58,451 bases of DNA from an uncultured Acidovorax sp. (GTDB taxonomy: Bacteria > Pseudomonadota > Gammaproteobacteria > Burkholderiales > Burkholderiaceae_C), in assembly GCA_913774625.1 (NCBI GenBank), contig CAJYHL010000035.1:1-58451 (forward strand). Reading direction: 5' to 3'. Every line of letters begins with the position of its first letter. Positions within the stretch are counted from its first letter, which is position 1. Under the pieces are notes generated by a model. The model had not been told where the DNA came from. It was given only the letters and a program-made list of their open reading frames with translations, and ran no database searches. Below are positions 19,113-31,462 of this stretch, piece by piece. Made by a program: the position numbers and the translations under genes.

Positions 19113-20663
19113 ATGTCACTCCTCTCCCGAATCAGTCTCTCGGCCCGCCTGTATGCGGTGTCGCTCGTGCTCATCGCTGCGCTCACGGCACTGGCCGTCA
19201 ACGTCTGGGTGCAGCTCGTCAACGTCAGCGCCATGGCCGGCAACGCGGGCCAGGTCAAGGTGCTGCAGCTGGCGCTGATCGCCAGCACCGAACTGAAGGT
19301 CAGCCAGGTGCTCTCCAGCGTGCGCCACGGGATGCTGGTGAAGTCGCCCCAGGACATCGCGCTGGCCGACCAGGACATCCAGGCCAAGCGCGCCCAGATC
19401 GCGAAGAACGATACCGACTTCCTCAAGCAGATCGCCACCCAGCAGGGCCGCGACGCCTTCCAGAAGGACTGGCTGGCGCTGCAGCAGGTCACCTGGCCGG
19501 TGGCGGAGGCCAACATGCGGCTGGTGGCGGCCGGCAAGCAGGAAGAAGCCCTGGCCATGCTGATGGGCCAGACGATTCCCGCTTTCGCCAAGATGCAGGA
19601 CTGGCTCAGCGCCGAGCGCAGCCGCCAGAACGAGGACGTCGCGGCCCAGGTGGTGGCCATCGGCGCCGCGGCCGACCGCATCCGCCTGCAGCTGGCCGTG
19701 CTGGTGGCGCTGATCGCCGTAGGCCTGCTGGCCTTCTCCTGGTCCATCGCCCGCACGCTGCGCCACCGGGTGGACATCTCCCAGCGCGTCGCCGAACGGG
19801 TGCAGAAGGGCGACTTCACCCAGGCCGTGCAGGATACGGCGCACGATGAATTCAGCCCGCTGCTGCAATCGCTGCAGGCCATGCAGACCTCGCTGACCGA
19901 GGTGGTGGCCGTGGTGCGCTCCAACGCCGAGGGCGTGGCCACGGCCAGCGCGCAGATCGCGCAGGGCAACCAGGACCTGTCGGGCCGCACCGAACAGCAG
20001 GCCAGTGCGCTGGAAGAGACGGCAGCCACCATGGAGGAGCTGAGCACCACGGTGCGCCAGAACGCCGACAGCGCGCAGCAGGCCAACAAGCTGGCGCAGA
20101 ACGCATCGTCCATCGCGCAGCAGGGCGGCCAGATGGTGAGCCAGGTGGTCGCCACCATGCAGGAGATCAACGACAGCAGCCGCAAGATCGAGAACATCAT
20201 CGGCGTGATCGACGGCATCGCCTTCCAGACCAATATCCTGGCGCTGAACGCCGCCGTGGAGGCGGCCCGTGCCGGCGAACACGGCCGGGGCTTCGCCGTG
20301 GTGGCGGGCGAGGTGCGGACCCTGGCCCAGCGCAGCGCCGAGGCGGCCCGCGAGATCAAGGCCCTGATCGTGAGCAGCGTGCAGCAGGTGGCGCGCGGAT
20401 CGGACCTGGTCGATCAGTCGGGCCAGACCATGGGCGAGATCGTCGCCTCGATCCAGCGGGTGAGCCACATCGTGGCGGAGATCAGCTCGGCCAGCACCGA
20501 GCAGAGCTCGGGCATCCAGCAGGTCGGCGAGGCCGTGAGCCAGATGGACATGGCCACCCAGCAGAACGCATCGCTGGTGGAGGAAAGCGCCGCCGCCGCC
20601 GACAGCCTGCGGGGCCAGGCGCAGCAGTTGGTGCAGGCCGTGGCCGTGTTCCAGCTGCCCTGA
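19113..20663 (+). CDS. Methyl-accepting chemotaxis protein
   Basis: 516 aa, inner-membrane chemoreceptor. TM1 at residues about 12-34, a periplasmic four-helix-bundle type sensor (35-188), TM2 near 189-211, a HAMP domain (about 212-265) and the cytoplasmic signalling coiled coil. The hairpin tip that contacts CheA/CheW reads [23 protein letters not shown] (about 367-389). Methylation helices carry the usual Gln/Glu pairs ([19 protein letters not shown]). It ends in FQLP and lacks the CheR-binding pentapeptide, unlike the second receptor encoded at 27468. A strong terminator follows at 20775. It faces the five-gene sensory operon tail to tail. Confidence 0.95.
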
Positions 20664-21039: not shown

Positions 21040-22806
21040 TCAAGCCGTGCGCATGGGCAGCAGCAGGGCGACCTGGCAGCCCTCTGCCTGGCCGGTTTCC
21101 AGCCGCACGTCGCCGCCCATGCGCCGGGCGATGCCCCGGGCCAGCGCCAGGCCCAGGCCGGTTCCGCCATGCTCGTAGCTCACCCGGCCATCGGCCTGGC
21201 GGAAGTTCTCGAACACCTGCTCGCGCAGCTCGGGCGCGATGCCCGGGCCGGTGTCGCTCACGGTGAGCTTCCAGCCCTCGGGGCCGGCCGAGACGTGCAG
21301 CGTGACCCGCCCCTGCCGCGTGAACTTCACGGCGTTGGAGAGCAGGTTGCCCAGGATCTGCCGGAAGCGCACGGCATCGGTCCAGACAACCGCGGGCAGG
21401 TCTTCCGCGTAGATGACCTCCAGCACCAGCCCCTTTTCCTGGGCACGGGCCTTGAACACGCCCGCCGTCTCATCGACCAGCTCGCGCAGGTCGTTGCGCG
21501 ATTCGCTGAACACCATGCTGCCGGTATCCACCTGCGAGAGGTCGATGATCTCGCCGAGCAGCGCGTTCAGCCGCTGGGCCCCCTGCCGGATCAGCCCGGC
21601 CGGGCCCTGGACGGCGCCGTCCTCGCTGCGGCGCTCCAGCAGCTCGGCGAAGCCCAGGATGCTGGTGAGCGGCGTGCGCAGCTCGTGCGAAATGGCGGCG
21701 AGGAACTGCGTCTTCGCCTCGCTGGCCGCCTGGGCCTGGGCTTCGCGCAACTGCAGTTCGCGGTGCTGCGATTCCAGCTGGCTCACCCCGCGCACCACCA
21801 GCCAGCCCGTGCCGCAGAGCAGCAGGCTCAGCAGGACCGCCAGGCCCACCACCAGCCTGCAGGTGGCGCGCCAGGGCGCCAGGGCCTCGGGCATGCCGCT
21901 GATGGCGAAGACGTAGAGCGGATAGCCGCCCACCCGGTGGTAGGCCGCGATGCGCTCGATGCCGTCGATCCGGGAAACGAAGGTCCACTGCCCGCTGCGG
22001 CCCAGCTGCTGTCGCACGAGGCGGCTGGTGCTGCCCAGCTCCGCACCTATGCCCGCCCCCTTGCCGCCGATGACCCGCGCACGCAGGATGCCGTCGTCCC
22101 CCACCAGGCTGATGCCGCCCTGCCGCCCCAGCGCGACCTGGCGATAGACCTCCTCGAAATACAGCGCGTCGATGGAGCCCACCACCACGCCCCGCACGGC
22201 GCCGCCCTCGGCCAGCACGGCGCGCGTGAGCTGGATGGTCCACTTGCCCGACACCTTGCCCAGCACGGGCGGGCCTACGTAGAGCCCGCCCCGCATCAGC
22301 ATGGACCTCTGCTGCGGGGACATCGCGTCGGGACGCAGATGCACCTTGACGTGGTCGCGGCCGGAGAGATCGACCGGCCCGGTCCTGGCCGCGCCGGGGT
22401 CCACGTTGCTGGTGACGAAGCGGCCCTGCGCATCCAGCACGGACAGCTGCGGAAGAATGGCCTCGGACAGCCCGGTCGAATCCACGATGCGCTGCAGTTC
22501 GTCGGCCGGCACCGGCCCCCGGGACGCCAGGATGGCCAGCCGCAGCACGGCCTGATCGACGGCCGAGAAGACCCGTGCCGTCTGCTCCTGCAATGCTTGG
22601 GCGACGTTGGCGTTCTGCCGGAACTCGGCGTCCACCGCCTGCCGGCGCTGCTCCTGGAGCAGGGTCCAGACCGTGATCCAGACCGCGAACAGCACCACCA
22701 CCAGCATGGCGGTGGTCAGGGTCAGCAGGCGCGTGGGGCGCCGGCCCGCGCAGGGCGCGGCGGCCAGCGCGCTGCGCAGGCGGGCCAGGGCACGGGGAAC
22801 GCTCAT
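21040..22806 (-). CDS. Sensor histidine kinase with periplasmic Cache-like domain (kinase 2)
   Basis: 588 aa. TM1 at 29-50, a large periplasmic region (51-315) of the PDC/dCache kind with paired sensor modules, and TM2 at 317-338. It then has a short linker without PAS domains, a HisKA domain with the phospho-acceptor H374 in AAISHELRTPL, and an ATPase domain with NLLSNAVKF, DTGPGIAPE and GGTGLGLALARGIARRMGG. There is no receiver domain, so the partner must be encoded elsewhere, probably the single-domain receiver of this operon or the receiver proteins at 29-30.6 kb. ATG 22806 overlaps the upstream kinase stop. It is the last gene of the five-gene minus-strand operon. Confidence 0.93.
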   Translation of the reverse strand: MSVPRALARLRSALAAAPCAGRRPTRLLTLTTAMLVVVLFAVWITVWTLLQEQRRQAVDAEFRQNANVAQALQEQTARVFSAVDQAVLRLAILASRGPVPADELQRIVDSTGLSEAILPQLSVLDAQGRFVTSNVDPGAARTGPVDLSGRDHVKVHLRPDAMSPQQRSMLMRGGLYVGPPVLGKVSGKWTIQLTRAVLAEGGAVRGVVVGSIDALYFEEVYRQVALGRQGGISLVGDDGILRARVIGGKGAGIGAELGSTSRLVRQQLGRSGQWTFVSRIDGIERIAAYHRVGGYPLYVFAISGMPEALAPWRATCRLVVGLAVLLSLLLCGTGWLVVRGVSQLESQHRELQLREAQAQAASEAKTQFLAAISHELRTPLTSILGFAELLERRSEDGAVQGPAGLIRQGAQRLNALLGEIIDLSQVDTGSMVFSESRNDLRELVDETAGVFKARAQEKGLVLEVIYAEDLPAVVWTDAVRFRQILGNLLSNAVKFTRQGRVTLHVSAGPEGWKLTVSDTGPGIAPELREQVFENFRQADGRVSYEHGGTGLGLALARGIARRMGGDVRLETGQAEGCQVALLLPMRTA

Positions 22807-25286
22807 GGCGCGCTCCCGCTCTCTTCGGCCGGCAGGCGGATCTCGAAGACGCTGCCGCCGCCCGGCGCCGGCCGCATGGCGATGCGCCCGGCATGCGCCT
22901 CGACGATCTTGCGGCAGATGGCCAGCCCCAGGCCGGTGCCGCCATGGCCATGGCGGGTCGCGCTCGACTGCACGAAGGGCTGGAAGATCAGTTCGCGTTC
23001 GGCCTCGGGAACGCCCGGGCCCTCGTCCTGCACGCTGACGGCGATGCAGGCGCGGCCGTCGGCATGGCGCTCCAGCGCGCCGCGCACGGTGAGCGTGCCG
23101 TGCTCGGGCGAGAACTTGATGCCGTTGGCCAGCACGTTGCGGAAGACCTGCTCCATGCGCACCCGGTCCACGCTGGCGCGCAGCGGCTCGTCGGGCAGCT
23201 GCAGCGCGAACTGCACCTGCCGGCGGCCCGCCAGCGGCGTCAGCTCCTGCACCACGGCGGTCAGGCTCTCGCGCAGGTCGTCGGGCGCGAAACGGAAGGA
23301 GCCCACGGTGCTCTCGATCTTGGAGATGTCGAGCAGGTTGTTCACCAGCTCCAGCATGCGCAGGCCCGAGGCGTGGATGTCGTCGAACATCAGGCGCTGC
23401 TGCGACTTCTCGTCGCTGCGGTAGATGCCCAGTTCGGAAAAGCCCAGGATGGACTGCAGGGGCGTGCGCAGCTCGTGGCTGATGTTCGCCACGAATTCGG
23501 ACTTGGCCTGCGACGCCGCCTCGGCCACGGCCAGCGCGTTGCGGATGGCCGTGATGTCCACCTTCACGGCCAGCAGCCCCATGGGCTCGCCGTTCTCGCC
23601 GGGCACGGCCACCTTGCTGACCTGCACATGCCGCACGCTGCCGTCGGGCAGGCGGAAGGTCTTCTCGTAATGCACGCGCCCGCCCTCGCTCAGCAGGCGG
23701 GCCGCATGCAGGTCGTAGGCCTCGGCTTCCTCGGGCGGCAGGAAATCGATGTTCCTCAGGCCGATGATTCCGCTGCGCGAGCGGCCCATGAACTCTTCCC
23801 AGGCACGGTTCACGCTCATGAAGCGCGACTGCCGGTCGGTCATGCACAAGGGCAGCGGCACGATGTCCTGCAGCAGATCGAGGAACTGCAGCCGCGATTC
23901 GGCCCGCCGCTCGGCGGCGATGCGCTCGGTCACGTCCACCGCGCTGCCGGCGAAGCCGGAAAAGACGCCATGCTCCTCCAGCGGGGTCAGGGCCATTTCC
24001 ACGTACAGCCGGTCGCCGCTGCCGCTGCGCATCTGGATGGTGCCGCTGCGCGGCTCGCCCGTGGCGTGCCGATGCAGCAGCAGCCGCAGCTTGTCCTGAT
24101 CGCACTCGGCCACCAGCTGGCTCAGGTGCCGGCCGACCGGGTCGTCGTGCAGGCCCCATTGCGCCCAGCGCGGATTGGCGAACAGCACCGTGCCGTCCGC
24201 ATCGGTGCTGAACAGCAGCTCCTGCACGCTCTCGACCAGGATCTGCAGCTTGCGCTCGCCGGCGGCGACCCGGGCCTTGGCCTGCTGCAGCTGGCCGTGC
24301 TGCTGCTCGCGGGCACGCATGTGGCGCAGCGTGAGGGCGGTGAGCCCGAGAATGGCGCACAGCACGCAGGCCAGTGCCGGCAGCAGCCAGCCCAGCATGC
24401 CCACAGCCCTGCCGATCGCGTCGGCACGCGGCCGCTCCACCAGCGCGACCAGCGGCAGCCGGGGGCTCGCGCGGTAGCCGATGAGCTGGACCGCGCCTTC
24501 AGCGTCTTCCAGGGCGAAAGTGCCCTTTGCCCGGCGCTCCAGCAGCGCCGCCAGCGGGCTGCCGGAGTTCAGCAGCTTCAGCAGGTTGGCATCGGCTTCG
24601 CCCGCCAGCAACCGGCCGGAGCGGTCCGCCAGCACGGCCCGGGCACCGGGCGCCATGGACTCCAGCAGCCCCTGCTGGTAGGCCGTGAACGAGGCGGGAT
24701 TGACGACGCCCACGACGAGGAAGCCGGTACGGTCTGCGCCCCGCGATGCATGGAAGATGACCGGAATGAACTCCACGCCCTCCGGCACGCTGCCGGGCTG
24801 CATCATGTCGGCCAGATAGCGCCCGTGCTGGCGCAGCCCGATGCCGACGCGGTTGGGCGGCGGCAGGTCGCCCAGCCGCTCCAGCGCCACCACCGTGCCC
24901 ACGCCACGCTCGGCGGTGCTGGCCAGGATGCGTCCGCTCATGTCCAGCACCGCGACGCTGCGCAGATCGGGCAGCACCCGCAGCGCCTGGGCGAGGTTGT
25001 CGCCGAGGCCGAGCGGCTGGCCCTGCTCGATCTGCAGGTCCACGGTGCCGGCGATGGTGCCCAGCAGCGCATCCGTGGTGTCGAAGGTGCGGCTGGCGCG
25101 CTCTTCCAGCATGCGCGCCGTCAGGCCGACGCCTTCCAGGTCGGACGCCACCGCGTTGCGCACCGCGGAGCCGATCAGCACGGCGGCGGCGATGCAGGCG
25201 ATCATGCAGGCGCCGATGCAGAAGGCCACCAGGGCGCTGGTGGCGGCCTTCAGCGGGTTGCGGCTGGAACGCAAGAGAAGGCTCAT
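22803..25286 (-). CDS. Sensor histidine kinase with Cache-like sensor and two PAS domains (kinase 1)
   Basis: 827 aa. TM1 at about 17-40, a periplasmic dCache-like sensor (41-295) and TM2 near 297-320. PAS 1 lies at about 345-455, PAS 2 at 465-580 (ending LLAVKVDITAIRNA), the HisKA domain has H604 in ANISHELRTPL, and the HATPase domain carries NGIKFSPEHGT, DEGPGVPEAE and GGTGLGLAICRKIVEAH. It lacks a receiver. The ATG at 25286 was chosen because it overlaps the binding-protein stop as ATGA; an upstream in-frame start would add 11 residues reading back into that gene. Co-translation with a periplasmic binding protein suggests that the bound ligand is presented to the Cache domain (inference). 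Confidence 0.93.
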   Translation of the reverse strand: MSLLLRSSRNPLKAATSALVAFCIGACMIACIAAAVLIGSAVRNAVASDLEGVGLTARMLEERASRTFDTTDALLGTIAGTVDLQIEQGQPLGLGDNLAQALRVLPDLRSVAVLDMSGRILASTAERGVGTVVALERLGDLPPPNRVGIGLRQHGRYLADMMQPGSVPEGVEFIPVIFHASRGADRTGFLVVGVVNPASFTAYQQGLLESMAPGARAVLADRSGRLLAGEADANLLKLLNSGSPLAALLERRAKGTFALEDAEGAVQLIGYRASPRLPLVALVERPRADAIGRAVGMLGWLLPALACVLCAILGLTALTLRHMRAREQQHGQLQQAKARVAAGERKLQILVESVQELLFSTDADGTVLFANPRWAQWGLHDDPVGRHLSQLVAECDQDKLRLLLHRHATGEPRSGTIQMRSGSGDRLYVEMALTPLEEHGVFSGFAGSAVDVTERIAAERRAESRLQFLDLLQDIVPLPLCMTDRQSRFMSVNRAWEEFMGRSRSGIIGLRNIDFLPPEEAEAYDLHAARLLSEGGRVHYEKTFRLPDGSVRHVQVSKVAVPGENGEPMGLLAVKVDITAIRNALAVAEAASQAKSEFVANISHELRTPLQSILGFSELGIYRSDEKSQQRLMFDDIHASGLRMLELVNNLLDISKIESTVGSFRFAPDDLRESLTAVVQELTPLAGRRQVQFALQLPDEPLRASVDRVRMEQVFRNVLANGIKFSPEHGTLTVRGALERHADGRACIAVSVQDEGPGVPEAERELIFQPFVQSSATRHGHGGTGLGLAICRKIVEAHAGRIAMRPAPGGGSVFEIRLPAEESGSAP

Positions 25287-26092
25287 CGGATCACCATCAC
25301 ATCCATGCCGTGCTTCCATGCCGCCTGGTTGAGCCTGCCGTCCTCACGCACGGCCTCGACGAAACGGTCCACGTAGTCGCTCCAGGCCGGCCGGTCCAGC
25401 GCGGTGGCATAGGCGTATTGCATCATCTCTACCGGGGCCGGCGGCTTGATGGCGCGGGCCCAGCCGGTGGTACGGGCCAGCAGCTCGCTGCTGCTGAAAT
25501 TGGTCAGGAACACGTCGATCCGCCCGGCCTGCAGATCCTGCCGCAGTACGGGAAAGGCCCGCGCCACCACCTGGGCGGCACGCAGGCGGGGGGCGATGTC
25601 CGTTTCGAAATAGGTGGCAGCCACCACGCCGACCACCACGCCCGGTCGGTCGATGTCCGCCCACTGCCGCACCACCGGGCTGCCCCGGTTGACCACGGCG
25701 TACACGTCGCTGCGCAGATGGGGCGTGGCCAAGCGCATGCCGCGCCTTCGCTGCGCGGAATTGGCCCAGGCGGACATGGAAATGTCGCAGCGGCGCGCAG
25801 CCAGGTCGTCCGCCACGGTGTCGGGCGTCGTATCGATGAACTGCGCCGGAAGGCCCAGGCCAGCGGCCAGGACCTGCGCCATGTCGATGTCCAGGCCCCA
25901 GAGCCGGCCGGTCACCGGGTCGCGGTAGGTGCTGCCGAAATAGTCCGGCCAGACGCAGATGCGCAGCACCGAGCGGGGCATGGCGTCCTTCGCCCCAGGC
26001 GGCTGCGCGGCCCATGCGGCGCAGCAGGGCAGCAGCCCGGCGAGCGCCAGCCACGCCGCCCCGGCCATGCCGCGCAGCATCGCAAGCGTCAC
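25283..26092 (-). CDS. Periplasmic solute-binding protein (SBP_bac_3 type) in a sensory operon
   Basis: 269 aa from a GTG start that overlaps the HD-GYP stop (GTGA); an alternative ATG lies at 26080. Residues 1-29 form a Sec signal peptide (AWLALAGLLPCCAAWAA, cleavage before QPPG). The mature part has the family-3 binding-protein fold: LRICVWPDYFGSTY, LWGLDIDMAQVLAAGLG, DTVADDLAARRCDISMSAW and the later VVVGVVAATYFETDIAP. Such proteins normally bind amino acids or small acids for ABC import. There are no ABC permease or ATPase genes here; both downstream neighbours are histidine kinases. A role as ligand receptor for signalling is therefore more likely than transport (inference). Confidence 0.88.
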   Translation of the reverse strand: MTLAMLRGMAGAAWLALAGLLPCCAAWAAQPPGAKDAMPRSVLRICVWPDYFGSTYRDPVTGRLWGLDIDMAQVLAAGLGLPAQFIDTTPDTVADDLAARRCDISMSAWANSAQRRRGMRLATPHLRSDVYAVVNRGSPVVRQWADIDRPGVVVGVVAATYFETDIAPRLRAAQVVARAFPVLRQDLQAGRIDVFLTNFSSSELLARTTGWARAIKPPAPVEMMQYAYATALDRPAWSDYVDRFVEAVREDGRLNQAAWKHGMDVMVIR

Positions 26093-26841
26093 AGCGCGAT
26101 GTCCTTTTCCACCAGGTCGCGGAAGCTCGGGCGCAGATCGGTCACGCGCTGATGCAGGCGCTGTATTTCAGGCAGGTGGGCCAGGAAGACATCCACGATC
26201 TCGGGATCGAAGGCGGCGCCGCGTTCCTCGTGGATCATGCGCACGGTCTCTTGCACGCTGAAGGCCTTGCGATAGACGCGGTCCATGGTGAGCGCGTCGA
26301 AGAAATCCACCACCGCCACGATGCGGCCCGACAGCGGGATCTGCCTGCCCGACAGGCCACAGGGATAGCCCTTGCCGTCCCAGCGCTCGTGGTGCGAGAG
26401 CGCGGTTTCCGCCGCCAGCTTGAACACCGGAATGTTCGACATGCCGAGGATGGCTGCGCCGTTGGTGGTGTGCTGCTTCATGATCTCGCGCTCTTCGGGC
26501 GTGAGCGGGCCGGGCTTCTTCAGCACCGCATCGGGCGTGCCGATCTTGCCGATGTCGTGCATGGGCGCGGCGCGGCGCAGCATCTGCGCGTAGGCCGCAG
26601 GCTGGCCCAGGAGCAGGGCCAGGCATTCGGCCAGGAAGCCGATGCGCACGATATGCACGCCGGTGTCGTCGTCCTTGAACTCGGCCGCGATGCTCAGCTG
26701 CAGCAGCGCCTCGTGATGCGCGCGGGTCACCTCCTCCAGGGCCTGGTTGCGCTCGTGGTAGAGGCGCCCCAGGTCGGCCACCATGCGCTCCATCTGCGCC
26801 TGCGCCATCGCATCGACGTAATGCCGCGCAGCCTCCGTCAT
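26089..26841 (-). CDS. HD-GYP domain c-di-GMP phosphodiesterase
   Basis: 250 aa. A short helical N-terminus (1-50) precedes an HD-GYP domain with intact residues: DTGVHIVR (59-66), HDIGKIG (95-101), HHERWDGKGYP (150-160) and VVDFFDALT. The GYP signature and complete metal ligands predict hydrolysis of cyclic di-GMP. Most relatives carry a fused receiver domain; here the receiver is a separate gene immediately upstream with a 4-nt overlap, so this looks like a split version of the common REC-HD-GYP protein. The ATG at 26841 overlaps the receiver stop, and its own stop overlaps the GTG of the binding protein. Confidence 0.93.
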   Translation of the reverse strand: MTEAARHYVDAMAQAQMERMVADLGRLYHERNQALEEVTRAHHEALLQLSIAAEFKDDDTGVHIVRIGFLAECLALLLGQPAAYAQMLRRAAPMHDIGKIGTPDAVLKKPGPLTPEEREIMKQHTTNGAAILGMSNIPVFKLAAETALSHHERWDGKGYPCGLSGRQIPLSGRIVAVVDFFDALTMDRVYRKAFSVQETVRMIHEERGAAFDPEIVDVFLAHLPEIQRLHQRVTDLRPSFRDLVEKDIAL

Positions 26842-27233
26842 GGCATGGCCCCGGCTGCGTGCAGCAGCTTCTGCTTGACCGTCTCCAGCAGCTCCAGCGG
26901 GCTGAACGGCTTGATCAGATAGGCGTCGGCCCCAGCGGCAAGCCCGCTCTCCACGTCGGCCTGCCGGCCCCGCGCGGTCAGCAGGATCACGGGCGGGGAC
27001 AGCGCGTCCTCTCCCCCCTCCTGCTTGATCAGCCGGCAGAGATCGAGCCCGTCGATCGCCCCGGGCGTCATCACGTCCAGCAGCACCAGATCGGGCCGCA
27101 GGACCTGGAAGACGTGCGCCCCCTCGTCGGCGGTGGCGCACTCCTCGATCGAATAGCTCTCCAGCTCCAGCGTCATGCGGATGAGCCTGCGGATCTCCTG
27201 CTGATCCTCCACGACCAGGATTTTCTTCAACAT
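26838..27233 (-). CDS. Single-domain response regulator (CheY-like receiver)
   Basis: 131 aa, only a receiver domain. Acidic pocket E9/D10, phosphorylation site D53 in LVLLDVMTPG, switch Thr near 82 in ILLTARG and the conserved lysine in YLIKPFSPLEL. The ATG at 27233 was chosen since MLKKILVVEDQ is a canonical start and the upstream in-frame extension is AT-rich leader sequence. It is the first gene of the five-gene operon and overlaps the HD-GYP gene by 4 nt. It is the obvious partner of the two kinases, and may control the HD-GYP protein through complex formation (inference). Confidence 0.93.
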   Translation of the reverse strand: MLKKILVVEDQQEIRRLIRMTLELESYSIEECATADEGAHVFQVLRPDLVLLDVMTPGAIDGLDLCRLIKQEGGEDALSPPVILLTARGRQADVESGLAAGADAYLIKPFSPLELLETVKQKLLHAAGAMP

Positions 27234-27467
27234 GTCTCGCCTCCGTATCAAATTAATGGTTGCAAATATCATATCCATCATTTAATCTTGCAACCAGCCT
27301 TTTCGGCGTAGCCCCATCGTAAGGCTGGGATACCACGAAGGCGAGTGCATAGACAGGAGGCGGCTTGATGTGCGTCATGCAACCGGCAGTTGGCTGTGAC
27401 TGCCATCACCTTCGCCAGCATTCATGCCCCGCGCTCGAAGCCAACCCCTCACCCAAGGAGTGAACCC

Positions 27468-29219
27468 ATGTTCGGAACAATGACAGTCGCCAAGAAGCTG
27501 GCCCTGGGCTTCGGCTCCCTGCTGGCCATCGGCATAGGCATCGTCGCCTATGCCGCCTGGACCCTCAACGGCCTCAACGCGAGCATCACGGAACTGGCCA
27601 GCCATCGCATGGCGCAGGTACAGCAATTCAGCCAGATCAAGGACAACGTCCAGACCACAGGGCGCTACGCGCGCAACATCGTCATCAACAACGAGCCGCA
27701 GTTCGTCGCCGGCGAACGCAAGAAGATCGCAGACTTGATCGCCAACAACACGGAACTGCTGAAGAAGCTCGACCAGAGCCTGAGATCGCCCCAGGCGCGC
27801 GATCTGCTCAAGCAGCTCCATGAAGCCCGCGGCCCCTATCTCAAGGCGCTCAACACCGCCATGGAGATGGCGGAGAAAGGCCAGCAGGCGGAGGCCGGCA
27901 AGTACCTGATCGATGTCGTGCGGCCCGTGCAGAACGTCTATTTCAAGACCATCGACGACTCGGTCAACCTGCAGCGTGCCATGGCGGATGGGCAGGCCCT
28001 CTCGGCCTCCGAGACGGCGCACTCCAGCGTGGTGATGATGTCCACGCTGGCAGCGGGCATGGCCCTGGTCGGCGCAGCCGTGGGCTGGCTGGTGACGCGC
28101 GATCTGCGCCGGGCCCTGGGCGCCGAGCCGGCCGCGCTGAGCACGGCCGCCAGCCGCGTGGCCGATGGCGACCTGAGCCAGCCGCTGGACGTGCGGGCCG
28201 GCGACAGCGGCAGCGTCCTGGCCAACCTGGCACGCATGCAGGCGCAGCTGGCCCGGGTGGTCGCCAGCGTGCGGCAGAACTCCGAGAGCGTCGCCACGGC
28301 CAGCGCCGAGATCGCCCAGGGCAACGAAGACCTGAGCCAGCGCACCGAGCAGCAGGCCAGCGCGCTGGAGGAAACGGCCGCCACCATGGAAGAGCTCAGC
28401 ACCACCGTCCGCAACAACGCCGACAGCGCCAAGCAGGCCAACCAGCTGGCCCTGGGCGCATCACGCGTGGCGCAGCAGGGCGGCGAGGTGGTCGGCCAGG
28501 TGGTGACGTCCATGGAGTCGATCAACCAGAGCAGCAGCCGCATCGGCGACATCATCGGCGTGATCGACGGCATCGCCTTCCAGACCAATATCCTGGCGCT
28601 GAACGCCGCCGTGGAAGCGGCCCGCGCGGGCGAGCAGGGCCGCGGCTTCGCCGTGGTGGCCACCGAGGTGCGCAGCCTGGCGCAGCGCTCGGCCGAAGCC
28701 GCCAAGGAGATCAAGGAACTGATAGGCCAGAGCAGCGCGCATGTGGAACAGGGCTCGGCGCTGGTCGGCCAGGCCGGCAAGACCATGGGCGAGATCGTCG
28801 ATGCCATCCAGCGCGTGAGCGACATCGTGGCCGAGATCTCCGCATCGAGCAGCGAGCAGAGCAACGGAATCCAGCAGGTGGGCGAGGCGGTGAGCCAGAT
28901 GGACCAGGTCACGCAGCAGAACGCCGCCCTGGTCGAGGAAAGCGCCGCTGCGGCAGCCAGCCTCAAGGGCCAGGCGCAGCAGCTGGTGGAAGCCGTGTCG
29001 GTCTTCAAGCTGGCACCGGCGGGAGCCTCCGGCCACCACGCCGGCATGGCGGCAGCGCCTGCACGCAAGGCACCCATCGTGCCGGCTCCCAAGCCCGTGC
29101 GCGCAGCGGCCAAGAGCCAGCCTGCGGCAGCGCGCGCCGCCAAGCCCTTCGCACCGGCCCGGCCGGCGCTGGCATCGGCCACGGCCGGCGCTTCGGCGGA
29201 CAACTGGGAAACCTTCTAG
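27468..29219 (+). CDS. Methyl-accepting chemotaxis protein with NWETF tail
   Basis: 583 aa. TM1 near residues 11-31, a periplasmic four-helix-bundle sensor, TM2 about 187-209, HAMP (210-265) and a signalling domain with the tip [24 protein letters not shown] long Ala/Pro/Lys-rich tether (about 525-578) leads to the C-terminal NWETF, identical to the CheR/CheB docking pentapeptide of the enteric Tar/Tsr receptors. The ATG at 27468 has an AAGGAG ribosome site. It is divergent from the five-gene sensory operon. A 67-bp stretch coding the tip is identical to the other receptor gene. Confidence 0.96.
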
Positions 29220-29269: not shown

Positions 29270-29971
29270 TCAGATCCGGCCCAGCGCGCCGCGCAGCGCC
29301 TGCCAGCGGCCGGCGACATCGGAGAGGTCGCGGCGGATGAGCTGGGTATCGAGCGCCTGGGCCAGTTCGGCCGCATCCTGGGCGCCGATGAGCCGCAGCA
29401 CGCTCTTGAGGTTGTGAGCCGTGCGGCGCAGCGCATCCATGTCGTGCCGCGCCAGGGCCTCGTCGCCCGCCTGCACATCGCGCGGGAACTGCTGCCGGCA
29501 CTGGGCCTTGAAGGTCTGCAGCAGCGCCGCGTTGCCGTCGAACGGCGTGCTCTGCGGCGAAGCATCCACGGCCAGGGGCGCGGGGGCCGTGGTGCCGGCG
29601 GCAGGCTGGCGCACGGCGGAGAGGGCATCCATCACGCAGGACTGGAGCGCCTTCAGCCCGACAGGCTTGTGCAGGATGCGCCAGACCCCGGCCTGCCGCA
29701 GCTGCTCCTCGACATCGGGCGTGATGCCGGCGCTGAACACGGCCACCGGCATGCGGCCCTGCGCCAGCAGCGCCTTGGCGAATTCCAGCGCCGAGCCATC
29801 GACCAGCGTGAGGTCGGTCAGCACCATGTCGAAAGCTTCGGCCTCCAGCAAGGCGGACGCCTGCGCCACGGATTCGCACATGCGCAGCGCTATGGGCAGG
29901 CCGTCCAGGGCCATCGTCACATAGCGCCTGACGGCGGGGTCGTCTTCCAGCAGCAGCACCGGGGCGGCCAT
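29270..29971 (-). CDS. Receiver-Hpt fusion protein (phosphorelay intermediate)
   Basis: 233 aa. The N-terminal receiver (1-120) has E9/D10/D11, phospho-site D53 in MVLTDLTLVDGS and K102. A Pro/Ala linker (123-145) is followed by an Hpt domain (146-233) whose phospho-histidine is H186 in RRTAHNLKSVLRLIGA. This order lets a phosphoryl group pass from a kinase to D53 and, via H186, to or from another receiver. It is the second gene of a two-gene minus-strand unit, 20 bp after the HTH-receiver gene. The histidine kinases at 21-25.3 kb lack Hpt and receiver domains, so this protein may complete their relay (inference). Confidence 0.9.
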   Translation of the reverse strand: MAAPVLLLEDDPAVRRYVTMALDGLPIALRMCESVAQASALLEAEAFDMVLTDLTLVDGSALEFAKALLAQGRMPVAVFSAGITPDVEEQLRQAGVWRILHKPVGLKALQSCVMDALSAVRQPAAGTTAPAPLAVDASPQSTPFDGNAALLQTFKAQCRQQFPRDVQAGDEALARHDMDALRRTAHNLKSVLRLIGAQDAAELAQALDTQLIRRDLSDVAGRWQALRGALGRI

Positions 29972-29991: not shown

Positions 29992-30588
29992 TCAGGCCAG
30001 GCCCAGGGCGGACTTGACCAGGCCGCCCAGCTCCTGAACCATGTTGACTTTGTGGACCACCGGCACTCCGCTCAGCGCGAAGCGATAGGGCTCCAGTTCG
30101 CTCTCGGTCAGCGAGGTCACGACGATAAGCCGGGTGCTATCGAACTGGGGGCTGGTCCGCAGGCCTGCGATCAAGGCCGCCCCGTCGATGCCGGGCAGCA
30201 GGATGTCCACCAGCAGCACGTTCGGCTTGAGCTGCCCCGCCATGGCCAGGCCGCTGATGCCGTCGGGTGCCACATGCAGGTCGAGATCGGGCAGCTCGTG
30301 CTTGAGCACCATCGACACGAGATTCTGGAAGTGGACCGAATCCTCGATCAGCAGCACCCGGGATTTCTGTGGGGCCGGCGCGCGGTCCTGCGGCGCCAGT
30401 GTGCTGTTGCGCTGCCAGGCCTCGACCGACTTGCGGGAAATGCGGCGATGGCCGCCAGGCGTCTTCCAGGCTTCCAGCTCGCCGCGATCGACCATCAGCT
30501 GCACCGAGCGCACCGCGAGGTTCAGCTCGCGCGCAGCTTCGATGGTGGTCATTTCACCGCCGGCCTGAGTCAACGCTTCATTCGACAT
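29992..30588 (-). CDS. HTH (excisionase/MerR-like) - receiver protein
   Basis: 198 aa. An N-terminal helix-turn-helix of the excisionase/MerR kind (about 13-58: TTIEAARELNLAVRSVQLMVDRG then TPGGHRRISRKSVEAW) precedes a receiver domain (77-198) with E82/D83, phospho-site D128 in VLLVDILLPG and a lysine in VVHKVN. The usual order in response regulators is receiver first and DNA-binding domain last; here it is reversed. ATG 30588 is used; an upstream TTG adds 3 residues. It heads the unit with the receiver-Hpt gene and diverges from the binding-protein gene at 30713, a likely target (inference). Confidence 0.88.
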   Translation of the reverse strand: MSNEALTQAGGEMTTIEAARELNLAVRSVQLMVDRGELEAWKTPGGHRRISRKSVEAWQRNSTLAPQDRAPAPQKSRVLLIEDSVHFQNLVSMVLKHELPDLDLHVAPDGISGLAMAGQLKPNVLLVDILLPGIDGAALIAGLRTSPQFDSTRLIVVTSLTESELEPYRFALSGVPVVHKVNMVQELGGLVKSALGLA

Positions 30589-30712
30589 TCGAACCAATCA
30601 GTTATCTTTCAAAGAAATTATTCTATCGAGAAAAGTGATAGAAATACGCAAGACTTTTGTAAGCATTCGGATATATCACCCCATCGTATCCAAAGCGGAA
30701 AGAGAGAAATCC

Positions 30713-31462
30713 ATGCCGTCCATAGACCCTTCGCTCATCCAACGCATTGCGCCCACGGGCCGTCTGCGGGCCTGCATCAACCTGGGCAACCCCATCCTGG
30801 CGCGGCGGGACGGCGGCGGCCAGCCCGCCGGCATCTCCATCGACCTGGCCCGTGAATTCGGCCGGCGCCTGGGCCTCGAAGTGGATCTGGCGGTGTTCGA
30901 CACGGCGGCCCGGTCTGTCGAGGCCGTGACCGCAGAGCAGGCGGACATCGGCTTCTTCGCCGTGGATCCGCTGCGCGGCCAGGGCATCGCCTTCACCGCG
31001 CCCTATGTGCTGATCGAGGGCGCCTACCTGGTGCGCGACGCCTCGCCCATCACCGCCAACGAGCAGGTGGACCAGGCCGGCATCTCGGTGGCCGTGGGCC
31101 AGGGCAGCGCCTACGACCTCTACCTGAGCCGCGAGCTGAAGGCCGCGCGCATCGTCCGCGCGCCCAGCTCCCCGGCCGTGGTGGACACCTTCGTCGAACA
31201 ATCGCTGGACGTGGCGGCCGGCGTGCGCCAGCAGCTCGAGGCCGACGCCCAGCGCCTGCCCGGCCTGCGCCTGCTGCCCGGCCGCTTCATGGTGATCCAG
31301 CAGGCCATGGGCCTGCCCAAGGGCCGGGGCGAGGCCGCCGCGCAGCTGCTGCGCGGCTTCGTCGAAGACATGAAGGCGGAAGGTTTCGTGGTGGACGCCA
31401 TGCGCAGGCACGGCATCCAGGGCGCATCGGTCGCCCCGGCCGCAGCGCAGCCGGGCGCCTGA
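30713..31462 (+). CDS. Solute-binding protein-like (SBP_bac_3) without signal peptide
   Basis: 249 aa with the family-3 binding-protein fold: GRLRACINLGNPILARR, QPAGISIDLAREFGRRLGLEV, EQADIGFFAVDPLRGQGIAFTAPYV and AVGQGSAYDLYLSRE. The N-terminus from ATG 30713 (MPSIDPSLIQRIAPTG) shows no signal peptide, and extending to 30635 gives a charged, non-hydrophobic stretch, so the protein looks cytoplasmic. There are no ABC transporter genes nearby. It is divergent from the HTH-receiver gene across about 125 bp of AT-rich DNA, suggesting shared control. It may be an intracellular ligand sensor, an enzyme of the cyclohexadienyl dehydratase kind, or exported another way. Confidence 0.82.
   Translation: MPSIDPSLIQRIAPTGRLRACINLGNPILARRDGGGQPAGISIDLAREFGRRLGLEVDLAVFDTAARSVEAVTAEQADIGFFAVDPLRGQGIAFTAPYVLIEGAYLVRDASPITANEQVDQAGISVAVGQGSAYDLYLSRELKAARIVRAPSSPAVVDTFVEQSLDVAAGVRQQLEADAQRLPGLRLLPGRFMVIQQAMGLPKGRGEAAAQLLRGFVEDMKAEGFVVDAMRRHGIQGASVAPAAAQPGA

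What the first reader, a model, noticed from the sequence alone, without database searches (positions are those of the whole stretch)
25283..27233. Five-gene signalling operon with a periplasmic binding protein co-translated with two kinases, a receiver and an HD-GYP enzyme
The order is receiver, HD-GYP, SBP_bac_3, kinase 1, kinase 2 (27233 down to 21040), and all four junctions overlap by 4 nt (ATGA or GTGA). There are no ABC transporter genes. The layout predicts a ligand-sensing unit in which a soluble binding protein feeds one or both Cache-domain kinases and the output goes to a free receiver and a c-di-GMP phosphodiesterase. The combination, with a split receiver/HD-GYP, is not a standard two-component arrangement I recognise. 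The operon continues to 21040.
Basis: partly seen in the sequence, partly recalled or inferred. Interest (0 to 1): 0.75.

Follow-up and report, generated by a model that had tools for sequence, protein, structure and literature searches.

The report
Binding protein paired with swappable receptor
This five-gene cluster looks like one version of a bacterial sensing unit in which a loose periplasmic binding protein is nearly always encoded beside one kind of membrane receptor, while the inner part of that receptor is swapped between kinases and other signalling enzymes; how it works is inferred from gene comparisons and is untested in the laboratory.

Summary
In detail: REC, HD-GYP, SBP_bac_3, kinase 1 and kinase 2 lie head to tail at 27233–21040 (−) with four 4-nt overlaps. 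It is not a one-strain oddity. Of 250 family genomes 59 carry this SBP subfamily, at 63 places; at 61 of these a sensor like kinase 1's starts directly downstream on the same strand. The receptor's output varies between loci: histidine kinase, hybrid kinase, GGDEF, GGDEF-EAL or SpoIIE phosphatase. No ABC permease was detected within 3 kb in 87 distinct loci. The near-invariant unit is thus SBP plus dCache receptor. Kinase forms often add REC, a separate HD-GYP, and an HTH–REC/REC–Hpt pair (also in this window); kinase 2 is an extra (5 of 87). Most likely the ligand-bound SBP docks on kinase 1, which controls REC (hence HD-GYP) and HTH–REC. Kin in design: ArtI–STM1987, NspS–MbaA, LuxP–LuxQ. New variant of a known kind; docking, ligand and phosphate flow are inferred, and the distance tests are mixed.

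The parts
26838..27233 (-). REC, stand-alone receiver (131 aa)
   Evidence: Response_reg 88.6 bits; phospho-Asp and Lys kept in 38 of 38 aligned sequences
26089..26841 (-). HD-GYP c-di-GMP phosphodiesterase (predicted) without its own receiver (250 aa)
   Evidence: HD_5 125 bits; HD His and Asp and the GYP residues kept in 34 of 34 aligned sequences
25283..26092 (-). periplasmic solute-binding protein (predicted), SBP_bac_3 family, 269 aa, N-terminal hydrophobic stretch
   Evidence: 57.4 bits; hydrophobicity; model pLDDT 87.5, nearest folds AncCDT and amino-acid binding proteins
22803..25286 (-). kinase 1: TM, dCache sensor, TM, two PAS, HisKA, HATPase_c (827 aa); the SBP's near-constant partner
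   Evidence: sensor model pLDDT 85.8, nearest fold 3lif
21040..22806 (-). kinase 2: TM, dCache_1, TM, HisKA, HATPase_c (588 aa); accessory, found in 5 of 87 loci
29270..29971 (-). REC-Hpt protein (233 aa), conserved neighbour
   Evidence: near the SBP in 50 of 87 distinct loci; phospho-Asp and Hpt His 40 of 40 aligned sequences
29992..30597 (-). HTH_17 (excisionase-like)-REC putative transcription factor (201 aa), conserved neighbour
   Evidence: near the SBP in 48 of 87 distinct loci; phospho-Asp 40 of 40 aligned sequences
27257..27296 (.). perfect 9-nt inverted repeat just upstream of REC; possible regulator site (inference, weak)
   Evidence: sequence only partly kept in P. wautersii, arms not perfect there

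Best explanation
A periplasmic SBP_bac_3 protein binds a small amino-acid-like ligand and docks on the dCache domain of kinase 1 (TM-dCache-TM-PAS-PAS-HisKA-HATPase). Ligand-dependent docking sets the kinase/phosphatase balance. Phosphate passes to the stand-alone REC, which controls the HD-GYP phosphodiesterase encoded by the next, overlapping gene, and, directly or through REC-Hpt, to the HTH_17-REC regulator. Kinase 2 adds a second Cache input. The net output is a ligand-dependent change in c-di-GMP plus a transcriptional branch. Shown, by comparison only: the SBP-dCache gene pairing, the exchange of output domains, the REC/HD-GYP linkage and the intact catalytic residues. Inferred: physical docking, the ligand, the phosphate route and the direction of regulation.
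For: At 61 of 63 family places the sensor (E<=1e-15) starts within 500 bases downstream of the SBP on the same strand (SBP places, sensor places). One miss is a contig end; in the other (G181) the sensor is elsewhere in the genome. SBP genomes that also have the sensor at E<=1e-25: 58 of 59, Fisher p about 1e-49. The pairing survives exchange of the output for GGDEF, GGDEF-EAL, hybrid kinase or SpoIIE, so it is the sensor that is kept with the SBP. On the SBP tree (77 rows with a state) kinase versus c-di-GMP output needs at least 5 changes (quick tree). HD-GYP of this subfamily (E<=1e-70): 23 of 25 genomes have the SBP, Fisher 1.6e-14; in the other two it lies near a kinase gene. Fused REC-HD-GYP stands in the same place in 4 of 87 loci, which points to REC acting on HD-GYP. 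Mantel tests: SBP-sensor given kinase core r=0.34, p=0.0005, n=55; kinase core-REC given sensor r=0.40 and kinase core-HTH-REC given sensor r=0.35, p=0.0005, n=27.
Confidence: 0.5

Rival explanations
1. Kinase 1's dCache domain binds its own small ligand (for example autoinducer-2 or an organic acid), and the SBP only concentrates or scavenges ligand, or tunes the response.
For: The nearest solved sensor, 3lif, binds AI-2 directly. AsrK, a dCache_1 kinase, senses AI-2 and controls a phosphodiesterase response regulator (PMC11796354, abstract). Some K1-type sensors have no adjacent SBP.
Against: The SBP stays beside the sensor at 61 of 63 places, across output changes, which a mere scavenger would hardly need.
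Confidence: 0.22
2. The SBP is the binding protein of an amino-acid ABC transporter encoded elsewhere and also signals.
For: Family SBP_bac_3; a 33% identical relative in Methylobacterium sits in a real ABC operon. ABC ATPase-like genes occur within 7 kb of several loci, and in two genus members (L132, L135) with permeases.
Against: No ABC permease detected within 3 kb in 87 distinct loci (one permease query); the other SBP relatives in the own genome are at most 30% identical.
Confidence: 0.15
3. Kinase 2, not kinase 1, is the cognate kinase for REC and HD-GYP, and the SBP-kinase 1 pair feeds the HTH-REC branch.
For: In the assembly of the closest relative (L001, the same locus as L129) kinase 1 reads as two frames in one phase, while REC, HD-GYP and kinase 2 are whole.
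Against: Kinase 2 was not found in 82 of 87 loci (some cut by contig ends), while 27 of 87 have REC and HD-GYP.
Confidence: 0.1

Closest known systems
ArtI-STM1987 (Salmonella): periplasmic arginine-binding protein plus dCache_1 diguanylate cyclase
   Same: A putative periplasmic amino-acid binding protein and the dCache_1 domain of a c-di-GMP enzyme are both needed for the response (PMC8846402, passages read). The GGDEF-output loci found here have the same two parts.
   Different: Here the SBP gene is beside the receptor gene in nearly every genome that has it, no transporter genes are attached, and the window's receptor is a kinase with REC and HD-GYP.
NspS-MbaA (Vibrio, Sinorhizobium)
   Same: Periplasmic binding protein plus receptor changing c-di-GMP (PMC9993111, abstract).
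   Different: NspS-MbaA is a polyamine system; homology with the SBP here was not tested. The receptor here is a kinase in most of the 87 loci.
LuxP-LuxQ
   Same: Binding protein plus Cache-like periplasmic domain of a kinase that leads into a phosphorelay (recalled).
   Different: LuxQ is a hybrid kinase and LuxP belongs to another SBP family (recalled); here the relay parts are separate proteins and one output is HD-GYP.
RpfC-RpfG type REC-HD-GYP regulators
   Same: A receiver tied to an HD-GYP phosphodiesterase; fused forms stand at 4 of 87 of these loci.
   Different: In the window REC and HD-GYP are separate, overlapping genes; RpfC senses a fatty acid itself (recalled).
RmcA (P. aeruginosa)
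   Same: SBP_bac_3 domain as input to c-di-GMP turnover, L-arginine sensing (PMC8846402, passages).
   Different: In RmcA the SBP domain is part of the enzyme; here it is a separate protein docking on a dCache domain (inferred).

Membership tests
SBP-assisted sensor kinase (LuxPQ/BctE kind) | SBP gene genetically tied to a receptor with a periplasmic domain | tested here: met
   61 of 63 places in 250 family genomes
SBP-assisted sensor kinase (LuxPQ/BctE kind) | SBP binds the receptor's periplasmic domain and changes its activity | not testable with these tools
   no complex prediction or assay on hand; distance tests mixed
RpfG-type response regulator | REC and HD-GYP in one polypeptide | tested here: not met
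   separate overlapping genes in the window; fused in 4 of 87 loci
HD-GYP phosphodiesterase | metal-binding and GYP residues intact | tested here: met
   HD His and Asp 34 of 34, GYP 34 of 34, second His of HH 31 of 34, next His 32 of 34; the window has all
ABC importer binding protein | permease and ATPase genes in the same operon | tested here: not met
   no permease within 3 kb in 87 distinct loci; neither within 7 kb in the window; one ATPase and one permease query
Cyclohexadienyl dehydratase (nearest solved sequences) | catalytic Glu173 (role recalled) | tested here: not met
   the position, mapped by eye, is Tyr in 67, Phe in 6 and Ser in 1 of 74; the window has Ser
dCache sensor domain | tandem PAS-like fold after a long first helix | tested here: met
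   kinase 1; kinase 2: Pfam dCache_1

The most novel reading that the evidence does not exclude
The SBP and the K1-type dCache domain are one portable two-protein input module. Evolution has fitted it, with the same gene layout, to at least five kinds of output (histidine kinase, hybrid kinase, diguanylate cyclase, cyclase-phosphodiesterase, SpoIIE phosphatase), so one class of extracellular ligand can be wired to phosphorelays, c-di-GMP or partner switching by changing only the inner half of the receptor. The window's copy, with altered pocket loops, has been turned to a new ligand.
Probability: 0.5. Interest if true: 0.7.

Novelty: new variant of a known kind. Interest (0 to 1): 0.55.

Why it matters
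Few SBP-driven receptors are characterised (a 2022 survey speaks of about 10 examples of SBPs activating sensor kinases, PMC9602780, passages read), and gene adjacency alone has misled before. A pair kept together at 61 of 63 places while the output enzyme differs between loci is a good test set for how a binding protein drives a Cache domain. It also suggests an extracellular input for an HD-GYP enzyme.

Tried and rejected
Considered and rejected. Chance juxtaposition or one-strain arrangement. A frameshifted REC-HD-GYP fusion: separate REC and HD-GYP genes recur in 27 of 87 loci, and 15 of 27 such junctions are 4-nt overlaps. ABC operon. Cyclohexadienyl dehydratase: the acid residue is missing. 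'The five genes as such are the conserved unit': kinase 2 was found in 5 of 87.

Led nowhere. Literature searches for this arrangement: I saw the listings with titles and abstract starts only (for example 12 of 105 papers and 10 of 1,372); none of those listed appeared to describe it, one search returned none, and the 12 listed have no occurrence of 'excisionase'. This is no proof of absence. The inverted repeat upstream of REC is only partly kept in the nearest relative. The Mantel tests are mixed and do not remove shared ancestry. The SBP tree cannot place the window copy (end branch 4.14) and left out the P. wautersii copies.

Counting notes. The 87 distinct loci are the window, 60 regions from the family search, 14 from the genus and 15 from genome contigs, minus 3 with identical SBPs; some genomes give two loci, and they are not a random sample. 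Of the 87, 10 receptors were cut by contig ends, interrupted, or had no output that my BLAST queries recognised; 5 of those 10 were put to Pfam: two are SpoIIE, three gave PAS or Cache only. In one search I merged two pieces of one split SBP in G160, so 64 rows became 63. The genome search scored at most 6 to 12 candidates per genome, so extra copies may be missed. SBP at E<=1e-50: 13 of 250 genomes in the order search (two of them in the family) and 6 of 398 in the phylum search (three in the family). Of 13 places outside the family that were fetched, 11 have the sensor beside the SBP (10 downstream, one of them only at 1.9e-13; 1 divergent); the other two (L196, L197) lie within about 800 bases of a contig end. 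ABC ATPase-like hits occur within 7 kb of several loci, and L132 and L135 also have ABC permeases there.
Full report
OBSERVATION. Pfam confirms the families. Kinase 1 has hydrophobic stretches at residues 11-48 and 290-323, kinase 2 at 24-53 and 312-342, and the SBP has N-terminal ones only. Two conserved neighbours are an HTH_17-REC protein (30597-29992) and a REC-Hpt protein (29971-29270), on the same strand, separated from REC by a chemoreceptor gene on the other strand.

CONSERVATION. A scan of species genomes with the SBP gave 15 loci; 12 have titles that name an order, family or genus, and these are Burkholderiales, while three are named only Pseudomonadota or beta proteobacterium. In 12 of the 15, REC-Hpt and HTH-REC lie divergent to the operon, and 8 of the 15 have REC, HD-GYP, SBP and kinase 1 in order. 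In 250 genomes drawn from the window's family, 59 have the SBP at E<=1e-40; in its genus 15 of 17 have it at E<=1e-30, the own genome included. The 250 family genomes were also searched for HTH-REC (54 genomes at E<=1e-45) and this HD-GYP (25 genomes at E<=1e-70). Co-occurrence with the SBP: HD-GYP 23 of 25 (Fisher 1.6e-14), HTH-REC 32 of 54 (Fisher 7.6e-11).

THE NEAR-INVARIANT PAIR. I took 60 regions of the family and 14 of the genus and annotated them, with the window and the 15 loci, in scripts. The gene right after the SBP carries a sensor of the kinase 1 kind in 85 of 87 distinct loci. A whole-genome search with the sensor profile puts it within 500 bases downstream of the SBP, same strand, at 61 of 63 places; the misses are a contig end (G138) and G181, where the sensor is elsewhere in the genome. 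In the other direction 60 of 77 sensor places at E<=1e-25 are beside the SBP; this direction is biased, because the profile came from SBP neighbours. Of the 17 others, three stand beside HTH-REC, and one of these (L165) has an SBP-like remnant in front. The profile cross-reacts with other dCache domains (kinase 2 in the window at 1e-11; a second place in the own genome at 6e-16; unpaired receptors down to about 2e-25), so matches of the receptors in L099, L100, L102 and L204 show a dCache sensor but not clearly this kind.

OUTPUTS. Of 87 distinct loci the receptor output is a histidine kinase in 65, a hybrid kinase in 1, GGDEF in 4, GGDEF-EAL in 5, not assigned in 10, with one contig end and one without a receptor. 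Pfam confirms GGDEF in L099, L100 and L102, GGDEF-EAL in L101 and a hybrid kinase in L111, and finds SpoIIE plus HATPase_c_2 in L077 and L096, which are among the 10. Outside the family the SBP again stands beside a receptor with this sensor in 11 of 13 fetched places, with hybrid kinase, GGDEF or GGDEF-EAL output; in Azospirillum and G512 the two genes are divergent. A more distant relative (33%, Methylobacterium) is in an ABC operon. On an SBP-only tree of 88 rows, 77 with an output state, kinase versus c-di-GMP output needs at least 5 changes (quick tree, 36 of 85 inner branches open, the window row too long to place).

THE REST OF THE KINASE FORM. REC and HD-GYP as separate genes upstream: 27 of 87; REC alone 14; HD-GYP alone 6; fused REC-HD-GYP 4; neither 36. 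HTH-REC nearby 48, REC-Hpt nearby 50, kinase 2 found in 5. REC, HD-GYP, SBP and an uninterrupted kinase 1: 23 of 87 (all). In the two HD-GYP genomes without the SBP the HD-GYP is near a kinase gene, in one of them as REC, HD-GYP, kinase in line. Phospho-acceptor Asp is kept in 38 of 38 REC, 40 of 40 HTH-REC and 40 of 40 REC-Hpt; Hpt His 40 of 40; kinase His 55 of 55; HD-GYP residues in 31 to 34 of 34. So the parts look active.

LIGAND. [quoted passage not shown] AncCDT-1 binds L-arginine (PMC7683729, passages read). The Arg that in this family grips the ligand carboxylate (role recalled) is kept in 74 of 74. The position taken as the ammonium-binding Asp (mapping and role recalled) is Asp in 66, Asn in 5 including the window, Thr in 3. 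Two Cys (46 and 102) are kept in 74 of 74. Three loops taken to line the pocket differ in the window and P. wautersii from the other 14 rows (read), so their ligand may differ. A carboxylate, probably an amino acid or near relative, is my best guess.

MECHANISM. The SBP is kept with the sensor while the output changes; therefore the SBP most likely acts on the sensor. In kinase forms REC and HD-GYP overlap or, in 4 loci, are fused; therefore REC most likely controls HD-GYP. HTH-REC and REC-Hpt are likely further targets. Distance tests agree for the larger set (SBP-sensor given kinase core 0.34, p=0.0005; SBP-kinase core given sensor 0.09, p=0.16; n=55; without the window 0.30 and 0.16) but not for the 27 loci with all relay parts (0.18 against 0.36). 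Given the sensor, kinase core-REC is 0.40 and kinase core-HTH-REC 0.35, but kinase core-REC-Hpt is 0.12 (p=0.11), whereas sensor-REC-Hpt given the kinase core is 0.40, which my model does not predict. These tests do not remove shared ancestry.

VERDICT. Real, conserved and larger than described; a new variant of SBP-assisted signalling, with the exchange of outputs behind one SBP-dCache pair as its most interesting feature. Interest 0.55.

Noticed in passing
window 30635-31462 (+): A second SBP_bac_3 protein beside HTH-REC has no hydrophobic stretch and may be cytoplasmic; 90% identical in P. wautersii.
   Followed up: partly
window 19113-20663 (+) and 27390-29219 (+): Two 4HB_MCP chemoreceptor genes flank the operon; 13 of the 14 genus loci also show a chemoreceptor gene.
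   Followed up: partly
L001 8780-11269 (same locus as L129): Kinase 1 of the closest relative reads as two frames in the same phase with an in-frame stop between them; kinase 2 is whole.
   Followed up: no
window 27257-27296: Perfect 9-nt inverted repeat just upstream of REC, partly kept in P. wautersii.
   Followed up: partly
L077 1919-5179 (-) and L096 9512-12211 (+): The SBP's receptor has a SpoIIE phosphatase plus HATPase_c_2 output, a possible link from an SBP to partner switching.
   Followed up: no
L203 from 10895: One 607-aa open frame matches both the chemoreceptor signalling domain and, more weakly (4.7e-12), this SBP profile; possibly an SBP-chemoreceptor fusion.
   Followed up: no
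L165 4581-4763: A short SBP-like remnant (E 3e-4) stands in front of a K1-type receptor, as if the SBP gene had decayed.
   Followed up: no
window 29992-30597 (-): HTH_17-REC is a family of its own: 54 of 250 family genomes have it, 22 of them without this SBP; 9 of 17 such loci looked at away from the SBP have REC-Hpt beside it.
   Followed up: partly
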